The notes under the pieces: generated by a model
Database searches by the model: none
Seen by the model: only the letters and a program-made list of their open reading frames with translations
What the model was told of the DNA's origin: nothing
Position numbers and translations under genes: made by a program
Shown here: piece by piece, positions 11,098 to 21,411 of the stretch
Position numbering within the stretch: position 1 is the stretch's first letter
Layout of the letters: each line of letters begins with the position of its first letter
Source of the DNA: Sphaerobacter thermophilus DSM 20745
GTDB taxonomy: Bacteria > Chloroflexota > Chloroflexia > Thermomicrobiales > Thermomicrobiaceae
NCBI RefSeq assembly: GCF_000024985.1
Contig: NC_013523.1
Location: forward strand, 1,612,001-1,676,000
Reading direction: 5' to 3'
DNA length: 64,000 nt

Positions 11098-11156
11098 CTA
11101 CCCGCGAGCCGCGGCGGCGCGACGGACGGCTTCCGGTGCGCCGTGGCAGTTCTTGT
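11098..11156 (-). pseudogene. Displaced original 3' end of secA
   Basis: Read leftward from the shared core, the codons are AAC TGC CAC GGC GCA ..., i.e. NCHGAPEAVRRAAAARG and a TAG stop at 11100-11098. Joined to the secA sequence right of the core at 18859, this gives GSGKKYK followed by NCHG, the usual SecA zinc-motif ending. The fragment is followed at once by a strong terminator. It therefore looks like the original C-terminal 17 codons of secA, cut off from the gene by the integrated element. Confidence 0.85.
11146..11156. other. attL: left attachment-site repeat
   Basis: GCAGTTCTTGT, matching GCAGTACTTGT at 18853-18863 with one mismatch (position 11151 versus 18858). The exact shared core is CTTGT (11152-11156). 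The strand exchange of the serine recombinase must lie in this 11-bp segment. Confidence 0.8.
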
Positions 11157-11229
11157 CGTGTTGGACACAATACGCTCGTGCTGCGATGGACGGACCGCGA
11201 CCTGGCCGCTGCGGACTAGAACATGCGTC

Positions 11230-11258
11230 TTGCACGTACACAGTGTGCGTGCTATAAT
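11230..11258 (+). promoter_or_regulatory. Consensus promoter with operator-like palindrome in its spacer
   Basis: TTGCAC (11230-11235), 17-base spacer, TATAAT (11253-11258). The spacer is filled by an imperfect palindrome at 11232-11252, GCACGTACAC-A-GTGTGCGTGC, with 9 of 10 pairs matching. A dimeric repressor bound there would block RNA polymerase. The promoter faces the nine-gene operon beginning at 11411. The leader 11259-11410 has no gene I recognise. Confidence 0.85.
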
Positions 11259-11410
11259 GACCCATAACGTAGTGTGTGCGCGGTCCCAACCGGAGATACG
11301 CGCGGGCCGATGCTACTGCCGTGAGGGGGCCGCAAGCGCACCGACCGTAACCGGATACTGCCAGGTTCCCGCGGGCGGTTGACGGCGGTCGGGCATGGTG
11401 GAGGTCTGCC

Positions 11411-11668
11411 ATGTCCGATCGACTGTCGGCTGCCCGCGCTGCGCTAGAGTCCCTGCCCCCCGACGAGCTCCGCGCGCGCAAGCAGCGCGCCGCCTACGCC
11501 TCTCGCGCGGCCCGTCGCCAGATGCGCGACGAGGCCATCACCGTCACGATCCGCCCCGCCCACATGCTGACCCCGGCCCAGCTCGCTGCGTGGCGGGAGC
11601 TGTGGCGCGTGCTGCTCGCGCCGGAGCCCGAGTCCGAGCGCGGAGGGGAGGGCCGGGGCGATGCCTAG
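11411..11668 (+). CDS. Small Arg/Ala-rich element protein, unknown function
   Basis: 85 residues, ATG at 11411 with GTGGAGGT upstream. Highly charged helical protein (ELRARKQRAAYASRAARRQ) with a second helix TPAQLAAWRELWRVLL. No family recognised; it could be a small DNA- or protein-binding factor. First gene of the operon behind the 11230 promoter; its end overlaps the start of the primase-polymerase gene by 8 bases. Confidence 0.6.
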   Translation: MSDRLSAARAALESLPPDELRARKQRAAYASRAARRQMRDEAITVTIRPAHMLTPAQLAAWRELWRVLLAPEPESERGGEGRGDA

Positions 11669-13037
11669 ACACGCCGGCGCCCCGGCCGGGACTCCGGGGC
11701 GCGCGCGCTGCGACGGTCTGCTGGGGGATCGTCGCGACGATGATACCACATCCGCTGTCCTGCCCACCACCGGCATGGTGCGTCATGCCCTGGCCTACGC
11801 GGCTCGGGGCTGGCCCGTCTTCGCGCTGGCGCCGCGCGCGAAGGTGCCGCTAGCGCGCTCGCGCGGGCACCACGACGCGACTACCGACGCGCGGGCGGTG
11901 CGCGAGTGGTGGGCGCTGTGGCCCGACGCCAACATCGGTATCGCGCTCGGGGGCGGGCGCCTGGTGGTGCTGGACGTCGACCGCCGCCATGGCGGAGACG
12001 CCACGCTCGCGGCCGTGGAGCGCGAGTACGAGCCGCTGCCGCCCGCGCCCGCGGTGCGGACCGGGGACGGGCTGCATCTCTATTACGCGGCGGGCGGGCG
12101 GCCCGTCCCCACGCGCGTACTCGGGCCGGGGCTAGAGCTGCGGGGCGACGGCGCGTACGTCGTCGCCCCGCCGTCCATCCACCCGAGCGGCACCCGGTAC
12201 CAGTGGGCCGATGGGCGGATGCCCGACGCGCTGCCGCCGCTGCCGCTGTGGCTGCTGGCGCTGACGCGACACAACCTGACCGTGCCGGCAGGCGAGCGGG
12301 ACACCGAGCCAGCAGCGGGGACGGGCGCGGTGACGGGGCTGGGGGCGGCCCTCGCGCGCCTCCTGAGCGACCCGGCCGTCCTGCCGCGCGTGCTCCCGCT
12401 GCTGGGGATCCCGCCCGACGCCAACCCCGACCGGTCCCGGGCGTTCCGCTGCCCGCTCGGGTGCGACGACCGGCATCCGAGCGCGTCCCTCTGGCGGCAT
12501 CCCGAGACGGGCACGGTGCTGGTCAGGTCCTGGCACCGCTGCCGGGGGCTGGAGTACCTGACGCTGCCGATGGTCTACGCCGGGCAGCGCGGCCGGGGCT
12601 GGCGCTGGCTCCGTGGGGCGGCGTTGGCGGCGTGGTCGCTGCGTCTCTTGCGCGACGCTGGCGTCGTCTGGGTACCGGCTCCCCCGCCACACCTGCTGCA
12701 CGCACCGGCCGCGGCGGCGGCCGTCTGGCACGCCTTCGGGCTCACCGTGGCGGCCGCCGAGATGGCAGGCGACACCGGCGGCGTGGCGTTCGCGCGCCGC
12801 TACGGCGTGGAGCTGACCGGGCTGCCGGAGCACGAGTATCGGGCCGGGTGGGACTGGCTCCGCGCGCATGGGTACGTCGTGCAGGCGTCCGCGCGCGCCG
12901 GCCGCCGCCCCGCATTGTGGGCGCCCGCTACCACCACCACCCCCACCACACGGAGAGAGACGGGCCTCGCCCTAAGGGAATATTCTCTTAGGGTGGAGCC
13001 TCGTGATGCTGGATGGCCTGCGGGTGGTGTGGCGTGA
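11661..13037 (+). CDS. Bifunctional DNA primase/polymerase (Prim-Pol family)
   Basis: 458 residues from ATG at 11661; an alternative start is Met39 at 11775. The N-terminal Prim-Pol domain is clear: AYAARGWPVFALAPRAKVPL, VVLDVDRRHGG (metal-binding D105, D107 with H110), TGDGLHLYY (D136, H139) and APPSIHPSGTRYQW. A CHC2-like zinc motif follows (C264, C268 in CPLGCDDRHPSASL, then a WHRC pair). The C-terminal ~190 residues are Ala/Arg-rich with a winged-helix-like end and no helicase motifs. Such proteins prime plasmid and phage replication, so the element probably replicates after excision. Confidence 0.88.
   Translation: MPRHAGAPAGTPGRARCDGLLGDRRDDDTTSAVLPTTGMVRHALAYAARGWPVFALAPRAKVPLARSRGHHDATTDARAVREWWALWPDANIGIALGGGRLVVLDVDRRHGGDATLAAVEREYEPLPPAPAVRTGDGLHLYYAAGGRPVPTRVLGPGLELRGDGAYVVAPPSIHPSGTRYQWADGRMPDALPPLPLWLLALTRHNLTVPAGERDTEPAAGTGAVTGLGAALARLLSDPAVLPRVLPLLGIPPDANPDRSRAFRCPLGCDDRHPSASLWRHPETGTVLVRSWHRCRGLEYLTLPMVYAGQRGRGWRWLRGAALAAWSLRLLRDAGVVWVPAPPPHLLHAPAAAAAVWHAFGLTVAAAEMAGDTGGVAFARRYGVELTGLPEHEYRAGWDWLRAHGYVVQASARAGRRPALWAPATTTTPTTRRETGLALREYSLRVEPRDAGWPAGGVA
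12970..12993. repeat. 24-bp AT-rich palindrome inside the primase-polymerase gene
   Basis: CCCTAAGGGAAT (12970-12981) and ATTCTCTTAGGG (12982-12993) are complementary except for one pair (977/986). The centre GAATATTC is strikingly AT-rich in a >70% GC context. It is coding (end of the primase-polymerase gene), so the symmetry is likely selected at the DNA level, for example as a replication or regulatory site. Confidence 0.8.
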
Positions 13038-13108
13038 GCGGCGGCGGGCGCGGCGCAAGGGTGACGCTGGCGAGCGCGACGCGGCGCAACGGTGAGGAGG
13101 TGAGGACG

Positions 13109-13297
13109 GTGGTCTGTGTGATTCGCGCTGAACACGACCCGAAGCGGCCGGACGGGGAGCGCGGCACCGGCCGCGGCTGGGTGGTGGCCTGTCCGACGTG
13201 CGGCAAGTCGCGCGTCGTGACCCGCGCGGAGATCGTGAGCGGCGACTGGATGCGCTGCCCGCACTGCGAGGATGCGCGAGAGGAGGGCGGGGCGTGA
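13109..13297 (+). CDS. Small zinc-ribbon protein of the element
   Basis: About 62 residues from GTG at 13109, 8 bases after GGAGG; earlier in-frame starts (13013, 13100) are possible. Two CxxC knuckles, CPTCGKSR and CPHCED, about 25 residues apart make a zinc ribbon, as in small transcription or replication accessory proteins. Overlaps the next gene by four bases (GTGA). Confidence 0.65.
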   Translation: MVCVIRAEHDPKRPDGERGTGRGWVVACPTCGKSRVVTRAEIVSGDWMRCPHCEDAREEGGA

Positions 13298-13602
13298 GCC
13301 GGGGACCGGGCGCGCTGGACGCGATCCACCGCGTGGCCGCGCTGTCGCCGGAGCGGGCGCTGCTGGCGGCCGTGATCCGGCAGGCGGCCCAAGATGCCGC
13401 ACGGGGCGATGCTGAGGCGGCGGCCTGGCTGCGTTCCGAGACGTGCCGGGCGTGGCTTCAGCTGATCGCCCCGGACGGGGTCGACGTCGACCAGGTGCAT
13501 GCGCGGCTGCTGGCCCGGCTGCCCACGCGGGCGCCGCCGGGGGCCCCCACGCAGCGGGGCTACGGATGGGCGTTGGCAACGACTAGCGACCGAAAGGGGT
13601 GA
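13294..13602 (+). CDS. Hypothetical element protein
   Basis: 102 residues from GTG at 13294, whose GTGA overlaps the previous stop, indicating coupled translation. Helical, Ala-rich (SPERALLAAVIRQAAQDAARG), one Cys and several Trp residues. No family recognised. The arrangement resembles small early-region genes of temperate phages. Confidence 0.6.
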   Translation: MSRGPGALDAIHRVAALSPERALLAAVIRQAAQDAARGDAEAAAWLRSETCRAWLQLIAPDGVDVDQVHARLLARLPTRAPPGAPTQRGYGWALATTSDRKG

Positions 13603-13605
13603 GTC

Positions 13606-14175
13606 ATGGACCTCGACACGTTGGTGGAGCAGGCGAAGGAGCTGCGGGCCACGTACCAGACCAAGGCGAACGAGATCCGCCGGGATCGGGACCTGACGCC
13701 GGAGGCGCAGCGGCGGCAACTCAAGCAGCTGCACGAGGCCCACGCTGAGGCGATGGCCGCCCTGCGACGCCAGGCCGACGCGGCGATCCAAGCCGCGCGC
13801 CAGCGTCTGCGGCGGGCGGCGTTCGGGGCGGATCCCGGCCAGGTGGATAGCTACCGCGGCGCGATCCAGATTGCCGAGCGGGCGGCCGATCAGAACGAGC
13901 TGCAACGCACCTTGCGCCGGGCGGAAGACACCGGCGACGAGGTCCTGGCGAAGGCGGCCGCCCTGATCGCCGCCGAACGGGGCTACCGCGCCGTGCTGGA
14001 CGCCTACCTCACCACCCGGCCGCAGATGGCCCAGGCCGTCGGCGAGCTGGCCGACTTCGAGGAGAGGGTCGGCGATCCGGGCTGGCGGTTCGCCCTCCGG
14101 AGCAACTTCGCGGCCGCGCCGCGCCCGGTCGAGCTGGACCAGCCGGCGCCCGTCGTGGAGATGCGACCGGCGTAA
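13606..14175 (+). CDS. Coiled-coil element protein, unknown function
   Basis: 189 residues, ATG 13606 preceded by AAAGGGGTGA. Long charged heptad-rich helices cover residues ~1-130 (TLVEQAKELRATYQTKANEI and following), consistent with a coiled coil. The C-terminal 60 residues are less charged and end PVVEMRPA. It is the largest protein of unknown function in the element; a scaffold-like or DNA-coating role would fit but is not shown. Confidence 0.65.
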   Translation: MDLDTLVEQAKELRATYQTKANEIRRDRDLTPEAQRRQLKQLHEAHAEAMAALRRQADAAIQAARQRLRRAAFGADPGQVDSYRGAIQIAERAADQNELQRTLRRAEDTGDEVLAKAAALIAAERGYRAVLDAYLTTRPQMAQAVGELADFEERVGDPGWRFALRSNFAAAPRPVELDQPAPVVEMRPA

Positions 14176-14242
14176 CCCACGGTGCCGGGCGCCTCCGCCA
14201 TGGGGCGCCCGGCGTCACCGGGCGGAAGCACAGGAGGAAGCA

Positions 14243-14632
14243 ATGGCTACTAGATCCGACCAATGCACGGCAACCCGCCGGGACGGCGGGCGCTGCACGG
14301 CCCGCGCACTGCCCGGGCGGCCGTACTGCTTCGCGCACGACCCCGAGCTGCAAGCGGAGCGGACCGAGGCGCGCCGGCGGGGCGGCCGCAACCGGGCGAA
14401 GGTCGTGCGGCTGCGGCGCCTCGTGCCGCCGCGCCTGCTGCCCGTCTTCGACCAGCTCGAACAGGCGCTGAGGGACGTGCTAGGCGGCTCGCTGGAACCG
14501 CGCCGGGCGATGGCCGCGGCCAGCGTGGCGCGGGCGCTGGTAGACGTGCTGCAGGCGGGCGAGCTCGAAGAGCGGTTGCGCAAGCTGGAAGAGGCCGCTC
14601 AGGGCGAGGACGTGGGGCGCCGTGTCTCGTGA
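14243..14632 (+). CDS. Putative zinc-binding protein with CTAT...C...C..H motif
   Basis: 129 residues, ATG at 14243 after AGGAGG. The N-terminus has CTATRRDGGRCTARA followed by GRPYCFAHDPE, giving a Cys-Cys-Cys-His set often seen in small phage and integrative-element proteins. A basic segment (RRRGGRNRAKVVRLRRL) and a helical C-terminus follow. Function unknown; likely nucleic-acid binding. Confidence 0.65.
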   Translation: MATRSDQCTATRRDGGRCTARALPGRPYCFAHDPELQAERTEARRRGGRNRAKVVRLRRLVPPRLLPVFDQLEQALRDVLGGSLEPRRAMAAASVARALVDVLQAGELEERLRKLEEAAQGEDVGRRVS

Positions 14633-14915
14633 TCTGCGTCGTCGGCTTGAGCGGCTGGAGGCGGCGCTGGAGCACCGGCCGGGCGTCTACATCCTGCTGC
14701 TCCCGGGCGGCCGCCGGCGCGCGGTGGATGTGGGGGCGCTCCTGGACGTCGGGGAGGCCCTGATGGCCTTGCGTTCCGGCGATGCCGAGTGGGCGGAGCA
14801 GGCCCCACTGGACCTGGGCCTCGCGCGGGACCTGGCCGCGTCGGAGGCTGAACCGGGCGAGGGCGCGCTCTTCGGCGCGATTCGGCAGTGGTGTCGCGAG
14901 GAGGTGGAGAAGTGA
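14622..14915 (+). CDS. Hypothetical element protein
   Basis: 97 residues, overlapping the upstream gene by 11 bases. A basic N-terminal helix (SRDLRRRLERLEAAL) precedes a short strand-rich part (YILLLPGGRRRAVDVGALL) and an acidic end. No family recognised. The overlap on both sides supports translation as part of the operon. Confidence 0.55.
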   Translation: MSRDLRRRLERLEAALEHRPGVYILLLPGGRRRAVDVGALLDVGEALMALRSGDAEWAEQAPLDLGLARDLAASEAEPGEGALFGAIRQWCREEVEK

Positions 14916-15331
14916 GTGCAGCGCCTGAGCCGGCCGCGACCCGGGACCCGTACTGGTCGCTACAGCGGGTGCGTCGGGCGCTCCTGGACTATCACTACTT
15001 CCGGCTTAGGATCCGACCGCCGCGCCCGGACCGTCCCGTCCGACGGGGGCGTCGGCCCGCTTACGACGGTGAGAAAGTCCGCGTCGAGATCAAGGCGGAC
15101 CTTGACCGCGCGCTGGCCTGGCTCGCCCAGGTCGATAACGACCCGGAAGCGGCCGCGGCGATCTGGGCCGTCTTCTGCGATCCCGCGCTGATGCGGGAGA
15201 GCCTCTTCATCCGGATCAACGCCGTGGGCGACGCGGAGGGCGTCGGCTGGCGCGACGTCTACCAGCGCATCGCGCGGGGAATCGAGCAGATGACCCGCTT
15301 CCTGGCTGAGGACGAAGGAGGGGCACCATGA
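14912..15331 (+). CDS. Hypothetical element protein with C-terminal HTH-like helices
   Basis: 139 residues from GTG at 14912 (GTGA overlap with the preceding stop). The N-terminus is basic and Pro/Arg-rich. The C-terminus, GVGWRDVYQRIARGIEQM, resembles the sigma-like helix-turn-helix of small phage late-gene activators such as ArpU/RinA types, a weak resemblance only. It could control late genes of a helper or of the element itself. Confidence 0.5.
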   Translation: MSAAPEPAATRDPYWSLQRVRRALLDYHYFRLRIRPPRPDRPVRRGRRPAYDGEKVRVEIKADLDRALAWLAQVDNDPEAAAAIWAVFCDPALMRESLFIRINAVGDAEGVGWRDVYQRIARGIEQMTRFLAEDEGGAP

Positions 15332-15627
15332 GTGACACCGACGTGCAGATCGACCGCGCGATCGACGCCGCCCTGGCGGCCGCTGAGGGCAATGTCGGGC
15401 CGTACGACGCGCTGGCACCGGCAGAGCAGGACCTGGCCCTGACGCTGAGCTGCCGGCTGCTGCGGGCGGTCTGCGACGACGTGGCGCGGCGCCTGGCCGA
15501 GGGCACGCTCGCACCGGACCCGGCCTGGCCGGCGGTGCTGGCGGGCGCTCGGCAGGTGATCGCCCAGGCGGCCGCCCTCGGGCTGCCAGTCGGTGAACAG
15601 CCGAATCCGGCGGCCGATGCGGCCTGA
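15328..15627 (+). CDS. Hypothetical element protein
   Basis: 99 residues, ATG at 15328 overlapping the preceding stop (ATGA) with AAGGAGG just upstream. Acidic, Ala-rich helical protein (IDRAIDAALAAAEG) with two cysteines. No family recognised. It is the last gene of the rightward operon. Confidence 0.55.
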   Translation: MSDTDVQIDRAIDAALAAAEGNVGPYDALAPAEQDLALTLSCRLLRAVCDDVARRLAEGTLAPDPAWPAVLAGARQVIAQAAALGLPVGEQPNPAADAA

Positions 15628-15740
15628 CGGGCGCGGGCTGGTTCGGCTGCGTTCCCGGCCATTCGTGCCGACATGCGCAGGAAGGCGGCCAAAGTGCGGC
15701 CGATTGCGACGACGGCGATGGGCGGGGAAGGGGAGGTCGT

Positions 15741-15762
15741 GCGGATAAGAGTTGTTATCCGC
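15741..15762. repeat. Inverted repeat after the element operon
   Basis: GCGGATAA (15741-15748), six-base spacer, TTATCCGC (15755-15762), perfect. AT-rich within GC-rich surroundings. It could be an operator or a weak terminator between the convergent transcription units. Nothing else is recognised in 15628-15877. Confidence 0.55.
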
Positions 15763-15877
15763 AAATCCCGGCCGGCGGCCGCTGCCCGAGTGACCGCGGC
15801 CTGGCCGATTGGACATTCAGTACGCGCGTCGGGGCTCCCCTTTTTTGATTGCGACAGATGCCGCCACTTGACACGCG

Positions 15878-16168
15878 TTATTTGGCCCCAGGACGGGCGA
15901 TCGCGGGGCTACGAGACTGTTTACCTTGCGCGCTCAGATCGCGGCGTATCGGGCCGCCTGGCGCGTTGTACGGCCCGCGCGCGCCGGCGCGCTCAGTCGT
16001 GGCCGGGCGGCGGGCGGGGTACTGCTTACCGTCCCGGCCGGTGATGGTGGCGGCAGGTGGCGAAATTTCGCCAATGCTCATGAGGTCGTTTCGCACCGTG
16101 TCCTTATGCACCCCCACCGCCTTCGCGATCCGGCGCGTGCTCCAGCCCATCCGTCGTAGCTCCCCCAC
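15878..16168 (-). CDS. ParB-like helix-turn-helix protein, probably N-terminally truncated
   Basis: 96 residues if GTG at 16168 is used. The HTH reads WSTRRIAKAVGVHKDTVRND, followed by a TITGRDGKQYPARRP motif common to ParB-like proteins of phages and mobile elements. The normal N-terminal partition-like domain is absent; instead a second damaged copy of the same module lies immediately upstream. Possibly a DNA-binding remnant. Confidence 0.5.
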   Translation of the reverse strand: MGELRRMGWSTRRIAKAVGVHKDTVRNDLMSIGEISPPAATITGRDGKQYPARRPATTERAGARGPYNAPGGPIRRDLSAQGKQSRSPAIARPGAK

Positions 16169-16329
16169 GAGTTCCCGTCCCGGCCGGTGATGGTTTCGTT
16201 CGAGGAAGGTGAGAAATCTTGCTCACCTGATTTCAGGTCGTTCACTACGGTTCGTTGGCTCACCCCCACCGCCTCTGCGATCCGCCGCGTGCTCCAGCCC
16301 GTGCGCCCACGCGTGGGGGAGGCAGGTGG
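16078..16329 (-). pseudogene. Decayed upstream copy of the HTH module
   Basis: In the open frame from 16329, WSTRRIAEAVGVSQRTVVND and ITGRDGN are seen, matching the downstream copy (STRRIAKAVGVHKDTV, ITGRDGK). After ITGRDGN the frame runs out of register with the second copy. The DNA shows a tandem duplication with a period of about 146-152 bases (for example CACCCCCACCGCCT at 16109 and 16261). There is no start codon with its usual N-terminal domain. Confidence 0.6.
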
Positions 16330-16376
16330 TCAAGACTTTCCACCTGCCCAGGTGCATTGATGCAGATGCATCAATG
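16321..16376. repeat. Two adjacent perfect inverted repeats
   Basis: First, GGCAGGTGG (16321-16329) and CCACCTGCC (16340-16348), 9-bp stem with a 10-base loop. Second, CATTGATGCA (16355-16364), GA, TGCATCAATG (16367-16376), 10-bp arms. They separate the 101-aa gene from the HTH module. The second looks like an operator; the first could attenuate leftward transcription. Confidence 0.7.
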
Positions 16377-16444
16377 TGGGGCGTCCCGGCGTCACCCCAC
16401 GACGCCGGGCCGCTGCGGGGGGAGAGGATGGGGGGCTGTGGGGG

Positions 16445-16750
16445 CTAGTCCGGCAGCCGCAGGCAGTAGAACCGGCCGGGCGCCAGGTCCGGGCCGTAGG
16501 ACGCGGCCACGCACTGGTACACGTAGTCTGCGACCTCCTGCCAGTGCTGGTCGAGCAGCGCGCGCGAGGCCGCCGCGTAGGCCCAGTCGCCCCCGGGCGG
16601 GGTGTAGCACGCCTGCAAGCCGGTCTCGTTCAGGAGCGAGGGCGGCGCGCCCGGCTCGCGCTCGTACCAGCACAGCGACCAGCCGAGCCGCAGGAGGGCG
16701 TGCGCCACGACCTCACCGACCGTGGCCACGGGCGCGGCGTCCCGACTCAC
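16445..16750 (-). CDS. Hypothetical element protein (101 aa)
   Basis: GTG start at 16750 overlaps the stop of a 35-codon ORF (GTGA). Tryptophan- and tyrosine-rich: LRLGWSLCWYEREPG, YAAASRALLDQHWQEVADYV. No family recognised. Second gene of the leftward unit controlled by the promoter at 16893-16921, so likely expressed when the divergent repressor is off. Confidence 0.55.
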   Translation of the reverse strand: MSRDAAPVATVGEVVAHALLRLGWSLCWYEREPGAPPSLLNETGLQACYTPPGGDWAYAAASRALLDQHWQEVADYVYQCVAASYGPDLAPGRFYCLRLPD

Positions 16751-16854
16751 GCCACACGCTCCGGGGCGATGCCGGCGGCCGCGAGCAGCGCGTCGAGCAG
16801 CATGGATGCATGGAGTAGCCCCGTATCCTGCGTCATCGGCGTTGTTCCCGCCAT
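16747..16854 (-). CDS. 35-codon small ORF, first of the leftward unit
   Basis: ATG at 16854 with GGACGGAG upstream; the sequence begins MAGTTPMTQDTGLLHASMLL and ends PERVA. Its TGA overlaps the GTG of the next gene, typical of translational coupling. It starts about 32 bases after the predicted transcription start of a consensus promoter. No homologue recognised. Confidence 0.5.
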   Translation of the reverse strand: MAGTTPMTQDTGLLHASMLLDALLAAAGIAPERVA

Positions 16855-16892
16855 CACTCCGTCCTTCCCCTAATCACCGCTCCGGTGACGGC

Positions 16893-16921
16893 ATTGTAAT
16901 GTGTACCTAGTGACATGTCAA
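16893..16921 (-). promoter_or_regulatory. Consensus leftward promoter of the element
   Basis: Minus-strand TTGACA (16921-16916), 17-base spacer, TACAAT (16898-16893): a near-perfect sigma70 promoter. It drives the 35-aa and 101-aa genes. The -35 box overlaps repeated TAGTGACATGT operators, so a repressor there would silence it. Confidence 0.85.
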
Positions 16922-16932
16922 TAGTGACATGT
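16908..16932. promoter_or_regulatory. Putative operator: repeated TAGTGACATGT
   Basis: TAGTGACATGT occurs at 16908-16918 and 16922-16932, a 14-bp direct repeat; the first contains the perfect palindrome TGACATGTCA (16911-16920). The copies cover the -35 boxes of both divergent promoters. The neighbouring Cro/C1-type gene is the natural candidate ligand. Confidence 0.7.
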
Positions 16933-16952
16933 GGCGCGGGACCTGCTACGCT
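16924..16952 (+). promoter_or_regulatory. Rightward promoter for the regulator and recombinase
   Basis: GTGACA (16924-16929), 17-base spacer, TACGCT (16947-16952). Weaker than the divergent leftward promoter. Its -35 lies within the second operator repeat, which would allow autoregulation. Confidence 0.5.
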
Positions 16953-16989
16953 GTGTGGGGTGAACGTGTGGCAGTGGGAGGAAGATCCG

Positions 16990-17214
16990 ATGCCGACGAT
17001 TCGCGAACTCCGTGAGGCGCGCGGGTGGACACAGCAAGATCTTGCCGTGAAGCTGGACGTGGCGGTGTCAACCGTGAGCCTATGGGAGCGGGGCGGCGCG
17101 CTGCCACAAGTGACCCAGCTACGGGCGATGGCCGCGCTCTTTGGCCTCGAGAGTAGCGATGAAATCGACCTGGTGGTGCGACCAGAGGCACGCCGCCGGC
17201 GGCGCGCTAAGTAA
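16990..17214 (+). CDS. XRE (Cro/C1)-family transcriptional regulator
   Basis: 74 residues. ATG at 16990 is chosen over the frame's upstream codons because GGGAGGAAG precedes it and the HTH starts at once. A single helix-turn-helix fills the protein: IRELREARGWTQQDLAVKLD and VSTVSLWERGGALP; the C-terminus is basic (RRRRRAK). It is probably the element's repressor, acting on the TGACATGT sites upstream of its own gene, and is followed 65 bases later by the recombinase. Confidence 0.88.
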   Translation: MPTIRELREARGWTQQDLAVKLDVAVSTVSLWERGGALPQVTQLRAMAALFGLESSDEIDLVVRPEARRRRRAK

Positions 17215-18801
17215 GAAAGATGCCTCGCGCGGTGCCGGCCGCCGAGGCGATGGCAGACACCTGAGCAGGAGGTGCTGCGTTGACCAGTGTAACCGGTCTC
17301 ACGACTAACCGACAGCCCCGGCGCGCGGCGGTCTATCCGCGCGTTTCGTCCAAGCAGCAAGAGGACAACTACTCGCTCGATACGCAACTCGCGGCGTGCA
17401 TCGCCCATGCCGAGCGGCTGGGCTACGTCGTGGAAGAGCGCCACGTCTTCCGCGAGGTCTACACCGGCGTGGATTATTGGGAGCGGCCGCAGATGACGCG
17501 GCTTCGCGAGGCGATCCGGAACGGCGAGATTGACGCGGTTGTGTTCTACAGTGTGGACCGCTTCGCGCGTGACCCGGTTTTCCACATGCTCGGCCTAGCC
17601 GAAGCTCGCCAGTTCGGGGTGAAGTTCCACATCGTTACGGACGATCTAGACCTCTCGGACGATGACGACGTGCTCATGTTCTTCCTGCGCGGCTACGCGG
17701 CCAAACGCGAGTGGCGCGACCTGGCCGAGCGCACGCAACGCGGCCGCCGGGCACGCGCCGCGAAGGGCAAGCCGATCATCGGCCCGAAAGCCCCGTACGG
17801 CCTCGTCTGGAACGAGGAGGAGGGGCGGTATCACGTCAACGAGTCGGAAGCCGTCATTCTCCGCCGCATCGTGCGGGAGCTGCTGGGTGGTGCAACCCTC
17901 CGGCAGGTCAAGAACGGCCTGAACGCCGACGGCATCCCCAGCCCCAGTGGGAAGACGTGGCAGACCTCGACAATCAAGTACCTCGTCTCCCAGCAGCGCT
18001 ATACCGGTGTTGGCGTCGCCTACCAGTACAAGACGACCCGGAAGGGGGATCGCTGGCTCCGCACCGAGGTACCAGACGGCTGGGAAGTCCCGCTGCCGGA
18101 CGGGGTGTATCCGCAGATCATCACGCCGGACGAGTTCGCGGCGATTCAGTCCCGACTCGCGGCCAATCGTGCGCAGGCCACGCGCAACAACCGAGAGCCG
18201 GAAGCCTTCTTGCTGCGCGCCGGCTTCATCCGCTGTGGCCTGTGCGGCCACGTCATGGCGGCATCATCGGCCGGCGGCCGGCGCCGCTATCGTTGTGCGA
18301 CACGCGACAAGGTGGACCCGCCATGCCCACAGACGGTGATAGAGCAGCACGTGATTGATAACGCGGTGTGGGAGCGCGTGGTGACGGTGCTCAAGAACCC
18401 GGAGATCATCGCGCGCGAGCTCGCGCGGTTGCAGGCCGATGACCCGACCGCTCAAGACCTCGACATTGTCGAGCGTGCGCTGAAGGACGTTGAGCGGCAG
18501 CGGGACAACCTGACGCGCCACCTGGCCCTCTTCAGCGACCCAGAGGCTGCCGCGCCGCTCGTGCGGCAGATCGAAGCGCTTGGTGCGCAGATCGCCCAAC
18601 TGAAGCAGCAGCGGGAACACATCCTCGAGCGGCGGCGGGGCTGGGAGACGGCGCAGGACCGGCTCGCAGACCTCGAGTCCTGGTGTCGCCAGGTGGCCGG
18701 CCGTGTGGACACACTCACCTATGAGCAGCGGCGGCTTGCCCTCGAGGCCCTAGGGGTAGAAGTGCGGGTCTTCCCAAAGGGGCACGACCCGCGCTACTGC
18801 A

Positions 18802-21411
<2,610 letters not shown>

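What the first reader, a model, noticed from the sequence alone, without database searches (positions are those of the whole stretch)
11411..17214. Compact element with a primase-polymerase but no virion or mating genes: satellite-like candidate
Nine tightly overlapping rightward genes (ATGA/GTGA junctions) include a Prim-Pol with DxD and zinc motifs, a zinc ribbon, a Cys/His protein with a basic segment, and a protein with weak resemblance to small phage activators. A Cro/C1-type regulator and a serine recombinase complete it. This set (integration, regulation, replication, small unknowns) resembles phage satellites rather than a full prophage or ICE. Most of the proteins match no family I recognise.
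Basis: partly seen in the sequence, partly recalled or inferred. Interest (0 to 1): 0.7.

Follow-up and report, generated by a model that had tools for sequence, protein, structure and literature searches.

The report
Small satellite-like element inside secA
A 7.7-kb mobile DNA element has inserted itself into the end of the essential secA gene of a heat-loving bacterium; it belongs to a family of small, phage-satellite-like elements of the Chloroflexota phylum, and its attachment site lies inside its own integrase gene, so that inserting and leaving swaps the tail of that enzyme.

Summary
The feature is a complete integrated element of 7,707 bp at 11146-18863, not 11411-17214. Two congeneric genomes carry the empty site at secA. 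The 11-bp target repeat (GCAGTwCTTGT) lies in the SEC-C codons of secA. The element replaces the SecA tail and supplies a Cys in place of the last zinc-ligand His.

The same genome holds three sister elements at other sites. E2 (8.6 kb) and E3 (8.8 kb) have proven empty sites; E4 was not bounded. E1 and E2 share an almost identical 1.8-kb cassette. E3 and E4 carry a small terminase and a capsid protein but no detected portal, large terminase or tail gene. Gene 6 (zinc knuckle plus helices) recurs in small integrative elements across Chloroflexota, and in Rubrobacter and Akkermansia contigs. It has no match in 50,697 phage records.

Satellite-like is therefore the best reading (about 0.6). Packaging, excision and helper use are unshown. 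A related cassette in a congener lies next to a tape-measure gene, so descent from a phage is open.

Unexpected: attP lies inside the 3' end of the serine-integrase gene in E1, E2 and E3. Circularised in silico, E1 and E2 gain a shared tail, LRWTDRD(A)LAA, which integration cuts off.

The parts
11146..11156 (.). attL core GCAGTTCTTGT; left edge of the element
   Evidence: Homology to the empty sites of G400 and G401 ends at 11156; alignment of attL/attR/attB
11157..11226 (+). severed 3' end of the integrase gene (attP side): encodes ...RVGHNTLVLRWTDRDLAAAD* in frame when joined to the integrase across attP
   Evidence: homologous tail at the same place in E2 and in a G401 element
11411..11668 (+). 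g1, 85 aa, unknown; homologues at the left end of elements in G401, G316, G365
11661..13037 (+). Prim-Pol (AEP primase-polymerase) with downstream Cys/His cluster, no helicase domain
   Evidence: PF09250 5.7e-44; PHROG DNA primase 1.4e-33
13109..13297 (+). Zn-ribbon protein, 62 aa (longer ORF from 13013); homologues in E2 and G401
   Evidence: Weak Zn_ribbon hits
13294..13602 (+). g4, 102 aa; the one small gene of this set found in all four elements (E1-E4)
   Evidence: Alignment A1
13606..14175 (+). g5, 189 aa, coiled-coil-like helical protein; in E2 and G401
   Evidence: no match in phage records
14243..14632 (+). g6, 129 aa, C-x2-H zinc knuckle + basic GG segment + helices; TerS-like candidate (unproven)
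   Evidence: Homologues in 20 of 400 Chloroflexota genomes at E<1e-6, own included; other phyla; AF2 pLDDT 82; no phage-record match
14622..14915 (+). g7, 97 aa, RRLERLE protein; similar short proteins follow g6 in several elements
14912..15331 (+). g8, 139 aa, helical, sigma-region-4/ArpU-like by eye only
   Evidence: No phage-regulator family hit; single-sequence model of low confidence
15328..15627 (+). g9, 99 aa, unknown
   Evidence: identical in E2
13131..15764 (+). cassette shared with E2 (95% DNA identity overall; about 99-100% over roughly 13800-15600)
15878..16360 (-). tandem HTH-type repeats in two frames, probably a decayed regulator
   Evidence: Repeat D1; translation
16445..16750 (-). 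leftward ORF, 101 aa, unknown
   Evidence: no PADLOC hit
16990..17214 (+). Xre/C1-type regulator, 74 aa
   Evidence: PHROG transcriptional repressor 4e-11 for the longer ORF; NCBIfam HTH hits
17280..18959 (+). large serine integrase; ORF crosses attR into the chromosome (559 aa integrated, 548 aa circular in silico)
18853..18863 (.). attR core GCAGTACTTGT; right edge, inside the SEC-C codons of secA
18802..18852 (-). element-encoded 3' end of secA ([16 protein letters not shown]) replacing the host tail (HGAPEAVRRAAAARG*)
   Evidence: Translations; secA ORF

Best explanation
E1 is a 7.7-kb integrative element that its own large serine integrase inserted into the 3' end of secA. It most likely lives as a helper-dependent phage satellite: quiet under the Xre-type repressor, excised and circularised when a phage enters, copied through its Prim-Pol with host or helper helicase, and packaged by a helper phage. 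g6 (TerS-like by layout only) and g8 (possible late regulator) are candidate packaging and timing genes. SHOWN: boundaries, empty sites, sister elements at different sites, the shared cassette, a Prim-Pol without helicase, no virion or mating gene detected in E1. INFERRED: helper dependence, packaging, the roles of g4-g9. Its attP lies inside the integrase gene, so integration trades the conserved tail for chromosomal codons and gives SecA a new C-terminus that keeps a Cys/His at the last zinc-ligand position.
For: Empty sites at secA in G400 and G401, with an 11-bp overlap. Sister elements E2 (C1:2,488,047-2,496,655; macro-domain gene) and E3 (C1:2,508,157-2,516,997; msrA-type gene), each with its own serine integrase and an empty site; E4 on C2. 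All three bounded elements are 7.7-8.8 kb although replication and late modules differ. E3/E4 carry Terminase_7 TerS (1.1e-22) and an HK97-type capsid protein (phrog_10 1.3e-9; PF05065 1.7e-4) with no portal, TerL or tail gene seen in them. No Phage_portal or TerL_ATPase match anywhere in this genome. g6 recurs beside primase/ATPase and an integrase in small elements of other classes and phyla, and g5, g6 and g8 match no phage record. Open frames are kept at 30-60% amino-acid divergence, dN/dS mostly 0.4-0.9.
Against: No helper, cos/pac site or excision evidence. In G401 part of the cassette precedes a tape-measure gene, and E2 keeps a truncated copy of the gene that stands two genes before it, as expected if E2 lost a structural module. 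g6 cannot be tied to terminase small subunits: weak PHROG hits (best 0.017) in 5 of 19 members, fold search without a significant hit, hhalign probability 7%. dN/dS is not low.
Confidence: 0.6

Rival explanations
1. Deleted prophage: E1 and E2 are remnants of temperate phages whose head, tail and lysis modules were lost, leaving integration, immunity, replication and the genes before the packaging module.
For: G401 contig C21 has AlpA-primase-ATPase-Zn-g4-g5-g7 followed by a few small genes and a tape-measure protein (phrog_58 3.2e-39). E2 holds a truncated copy of one of those small genes (96% over 167 bp). The HTH region of E1 looks frameshifted.
Against: Two bounded elements without virion genes plus one with only TerS and capsid, all 7.7-8.8 kb, with different integrases and replication modules, would each have to lose nearly the same modules. 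The same slim plan exists in other phyla. In G401 no head or terminase gene precedes the tape-measure gene.
Confidence: 0.22
2. Integrative mobilizable element moved by a conjugative helper through an oriT, or a non-transferring cryptic element.
For: No virion gene in E1. AEP-type primases are also common in conjugative and cryptic integrated elements (PMC5862659).
Against: No relaxase or transfer gene among the E1 proteins scanned. Sister elements carry TerS and capsid, which point to phage packaging.
Confidence: 0.13
3. Ordinary genomic island with chance gene neighbours, not a unit.
For: Most proteins match no named family.
Against: Two independent empty sites give the same edges to the base.
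Confidence: 0.01

Closest known systems
Phage-inducible chromosomal islands (PICIs; PMC6092414)
   Same: Integrase, regulator, primase/replication gene, small unknown genes, no structural or lytic genes, own att site
   Different: 7.7 kb instead of about 12-15 kb; serine integrase; no shared signature genes found; no helper known; Chloroflexota host
[quoted passage not shown] PMC10803314)
   Same: Very small; integrase, regulator and primase as core; insertion at the end of a host gene; no capsid remodelling gene known
   Different: PICMIs sit next to fis in Vibrionaceae and have an AlpA regulator (six genes in the type element); E1 has Xre, Prim-Pol and a larger set of small genes
Candidate mycobacterial PICIs, including serine-integrase ones, and phiRv1/phiRv2 (PMC10654092)
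   Same: Small integrated elements, some with a serine integrase; candidates are defined there by integrase plus capsid gene, as in sister elements E3/E4
   Different: E1 itself lacks a capsid gene; no direct sequence comparison with them was made here
Capsid-forming PICIs (as described in PMC10690885)
   Same: E3/E4 carry capsid and small terminase
   Different: cfPICIs encode the full head and packaging set (portal, protease, connectors, TerL); that set is not in E1, E3 or E4
Integration-dependent immunity of mycobacteriophages (PMC9262239)
   Same: attP inside a coding gene; integration removes a C-terminal tail ending in -LAA
   Different: There the repressor gene is cut by a tyrosine integrase; here the serine-integrase gene itself is cut
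SSV-type archaeal virus integrases (own knowledge)
   Same: att site within the integrase gene, which integration disrupts
   Different: Tyrosine integrase split into two parts; here only the last 20 or so codons of a serine integrase are exchanged

Membership tests
PICI | Integrase + replication module + master regulator organisation | tested here: met
   Serine integrase, Prim-Pol, Xre regulator
PICI | No phage structural or lytic genes | tested here: met
   No such hit in Pfam or PHROGs for the E1 proteins scanned
PICI | att site never used by prophages | tested here: inconclusive
   secA site empty in the two congeners examined; prophage use not surveyed
PICI | Size around 12-15 kb | tested here: not met
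   7,707 bp
PICI | Genes unique to PICIs / interference with a helper phage | not testable with these tools
   No helper known; no interference gene recognised
PICMI | Insertion next to fis, AlpA-type regulator, primase | tested here: not met
   Inserted in secA; Xre instead of AlpA
cfPICI | Encodes capsid, portal, protease, TerS and TerL | tested here: not met
   None in E1; only TerS and capsid in E3/E4
IME / AICE | Relaxase with oriT, or TraB-type translocase | tested here: inconclusive
   No such protein among the ORFs scanned; oriT not searched
Large-serine-recombinase integrative element | LSR domains, short direct att overlap, empty attB | tested here: met
Phage satellite (functional definition) | Excision, replication and packaging by a helper phage | not testable with these tools
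   Needs experiments

The most novel reading that the evidence does not exclude
A family of satellite-like elements uses its attachment site as a state switch for its own serine integrase. In the circle the integrase carries a conserved LRWTDRD(A)LAA tail; integration cuts it off and replaces it with chromosomal codons, so integrating and excising enzymes differ in their C-terminus (stability, or direction of recombination). In E1 the same site also re-codes the zinc-binding end of SecA.
Probability: 0.35. Interest if true: 0.75.

Novelty: new variant of a known kind. Interest (0 to 1): 0.58.

Why it matters
It would extend small phage-satellite-like elements to Chloroflexota, where a literature search found none reported, and provides one genome with four related elements, three with proven empty sites, as a test bed. 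The hallmark gene g6 gives a handle for finding more. An attP inside a serine-integrase gene, with a conserved tail cut off by integration, would be a simple way to tell integrated from free state. It could be tested directly and would be of use for serine-integrase tools, where control of direction is a central question.

Tried and rejected
(1) Finding att sites from repeats within the window alone failed: the best shared word was 11 bp in the wrong place; the empty sites solved it. (2) g5, g6, g8 and the G401 116-aa protein gave no relatives in viral contigs, and g5, g6, g8 none in phage records. (3) g6 as a proven terminase small subunit: rejected for now. (4) g8 as an ArpU/RinA-like regulator: no profile or PDB support, model pLDDT 59. 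(5) Defence function: only weak PADLOC hits (ZorA 0.001 to g5, Cas11e 0.0035 to g6), taken as chance matches of helical proteins. (6) Joining G401 contigs C21, C106 and C128 by end overlaps: none found. (7) The RWTDRD tail in the third element (G401) is, by my reading, out of frame with the integrase end by one base as assembled, so only E1 and E2 support the in-frame fusion; L109/L110 give a weaker parallel (31 nt, E 0.076).
Full report
WHERE IT LIES. The window is C1:1,612,001-1,676,000 of a two-contig genome of 3,993,764 bp (contig lengths 2,741,033 and 1,252,731). These sizes match, from memory, Sphaerobacter thermophilus DSM 20745; that name is inference. Below, E1 is the element of the finding.

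CHECK OF THE OBSERVATION. Nine rightward ORFs at 11411-15627, an Xre-type regulator and a large serine integrase are there. Prim-Pol is certain (PF09250, E 5.7e-44). Several gene pairs overlap, but there are gaps before the zinc gene, of 3 bp at g4/g5 and of 67 bp at g5/g6. No virion gene was found among the E1 proteins scanned.

BOUNDARIES. Repeats within the window did not show the ends. Comparison with two genomes of the same genus did. In G400 and G401 the left flank of E1 matches up to window 11156 and the right flank from 18853, and the two matches overlap by 11 bp in the relatives. attL is GCAGTTCTTGT (11146-11156), attR GCAGTACTTGT (18853-18863), and the empty site of G400 reads GGCAGTTCTTGTACTTC. 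The T/A difference places the crossover in CTTGT. E1 is 7,707 bp long.

EFFECT ON secA. attB lies in the last codons of secA. The empty-site SecA of G400 ends ...[27 protein letters not shown]; with E1 it ends ...[28 protein letters not shown] (ORF). The element thus supplies a Cys where the host has the last His of the C-x-C-x8-C-[CH] zinc motif. A Cys or His there by chance would be about 1 in 16 (4 of 64 codons), so selection is suggested, not proven.

SISTER ELEMENTS. A DNA and protein search of the same genome found three more. E2 lies at C1:2,488,047-2,496,655, interrupts a macro-domain gene that is intact in G400, and has a core AACTsTGGATGGG. E3 lies at C1:2,508,157-2,516,997 in an msrA-type gene, with empty sites in G400 and G401. 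E4 lies near C2:452,600-460,400 and was not bounded. E1 and E2 share window 13131-15764 at 95%, with roughly 13800-15600 at 99-100%, which points to recent exchange, while their replication genes differ: Prim-Pol in E1; a CHC2-type primase zinc-domain protein plus an AAA_25 (RepA-like) ATPase in E2. E3 and E4 have a CHC2-type primase protein, a large putative ATPase without profile hits, g4, a terminase small subunit (Terminase_7, 1.1e-22) and a capsid protein (phrog_10 1.3e-9 in E3; PF05065 1.7e-4 in E4), and no portal, large terminase or tail gene was seen there. PHROG files the TerS-like protein under 'minor tail protein' (phrog_226); the Pfam name is preferred here because Terminase_7 is a curated family. 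g4 is common to all four. The whole genome has no match to Phage_portal or TerL_ATPase; other terminase or portal families were not searched.

RELATIVES ELSEWHERE. g6 has a clear family: C-x(9)-C-x(10)-C-x2-H in E1, then a GG segment, helices and GELExR. At E<1e-6 it is in 20 of 400 Chloroflexota genomes searched, this one included, and in contigs labelled Rubrobacter, Actinomycetota, Isosphaeraceae, Acidimicrobiales and Akkermansia. Several of these loci are small units of primase or ATPase, g6, a short partner gene and an integrase: L050, L054, L058, L066, L127, L130. Other g6 copies sit beside ParB-like proteins with P27-type TerS-like genes (L063, L065, named by eye) or near a neck-type protein (L052, phrog_5 1.1e-17). 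In the phage collection g5, g6 and g8 have no match.

THE COUNTER-EVIDENCE. In G401 contig C21 a homologous run (AlpA-like HTH, primase, ATPase, Zn, g4, g5, a g6-like short protein, g7) is followed by a few small genes and a tape-measure protein (phrog_58 3.2e-39), and then the contig ends. E2 keeps a truncated copy of one of those small genes. So part of the cassette is shared with something that carries tail genes. No head or terminase gene stands between the cassette and the tape-measure gene. Two other G401 contigs hold portal-containing phage pieces, but no end overlap joins them to C21.

FUNCTION OF THE SMALL GENES. g6 was modelled with 17 sequences (pLDDT 82): zinc knuckle and four helices. 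Foldseek gave no significant match in PDB or BFVD. Five of 19 members touch a PHROG terminase small subunit weakly (best 0.017), and comparison with the Cys/His protein that precedes TerL in G401 C106 gave probability 7%. A TerS role is a guess from layout. g8 looks like a sigma-region-4 type regulator by eye only. dN/dS across E1, E2 and G401 is mostly 0.4-0.9 (NG86): open frames are kept, constraint is moderate.

THE INTEGRASE TAIL. In E1, E2 and E3 the integrase ORF runs past the att core into the chromosome by roughly 60-100 bp. Joined in silico at the core, E1 gives ...AYSSTCRVGHNTLVLRWTDRDLAAAD (548 aa instead of 559) and E2 gives ...PSTVGWVHNHLTLRWTDRDALAA (529 instead of 524). These two tails come from the far ends of elements with different att sites. 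A third copy, NTVTFRWTDRDALAAAD, stands at the left end of an element in G401 at the same site as E2, but is one base out of frame with the integrase end as assembled (my reading of the cores). In the RWTDRD(A)LAA block all codon differences are synonymous (4/4, 2/2, 4/4 in the three pairs) against 27% expected, and the only indel is one whole codon. The comparisons are not independent, but this argues for coding. E3 gives an unrelated tail ending RVAAD. A parallel in another clade (L109 with integrase and left end contiguous, L110 with a severed QKQIRVRM tail) rests on 31 nt and is weak.

MECHANISM. Most likely: helper-dependent satellite life, with the regulator holding the element quiet, integrase-driven excision, Prim-Pol replication and packaging by a helper. 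Only integration is shown. The tail swap may separate integrating from excising integrase, by stability (-LAA ends resemble ssrA-type tags, compare PMC9262239) or by direction; untested.

COMPARISON. PICI criteria (PMC6092414): organisation and lack of structural genes met, size not met, helper criteria untestable. PICMI (PMC10803314): site and regulator not met. cfPICI (as described in PMC10690885): not met. Candidate serine-integrase PICIs in mycobacteria (PMC10654092) are the nearest described kind for E3/E4. Attachment sites of phage integration systems normally lie adjacent to int (PMC5311408); nine paper searches found no report of attP inside a serine-integrase gene or of satellites in Chloroflexota, but the library is partial.

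VERDICT. A real, precisely bounded mobile element of a mosaic family; satellite-like is the best but unproven reading; the tail swap is the most interesting lead.

Noticed in passing
L013:6683-6846 (C1:2,486,683-2,486,846): A dispersed repeat of about 160 bp: most of the 77 matches in this genome and 76 in G400 to the E2 region fall on it. Looks like a REP/MITE-type family.
   Followed up: no
window 15741-15762: Palindrome GCGGATAA-GAGTTG-TTATCCGC at the end of the E1/E2 shared cassette; it may be a regulatory or recombination site.
   Followed up: no
window 15878-16360, minus strand: Tandem HTH repeats with an ITGRDGK motif in two frames; short matches to the E4 region on C2; probably a frameshifted immunity regulator.
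   Followed up: partly
L059, L061-L063, L065, L131, L138: g6 relatives in Chloroflexota and an Acidimicrobiales contig lie next to a ParB-like protein of about 400-450 aa, some with P27-type TerS-like genes, and no structural genes nearby: another small island type.
   Followed up: no
L132 (contig labelled Akkermansia muciniphila): Small element with tyrosine integrase, HTH, endonuclease-like gene, coiled-coil gene, g6, g7-like gene and no recognised virion gene.
   Followed up: no
C1:2,488,047 and C1:2,508,157: E2 interrupts a macro-domain gene and E3 an msrA-type gene, so integration here breaks host genes, unlike E1 in secA.
   Followed up: partly
L014:1936-4129: Two transposase-like genes lie between E2 and E3.
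   Followed up: no
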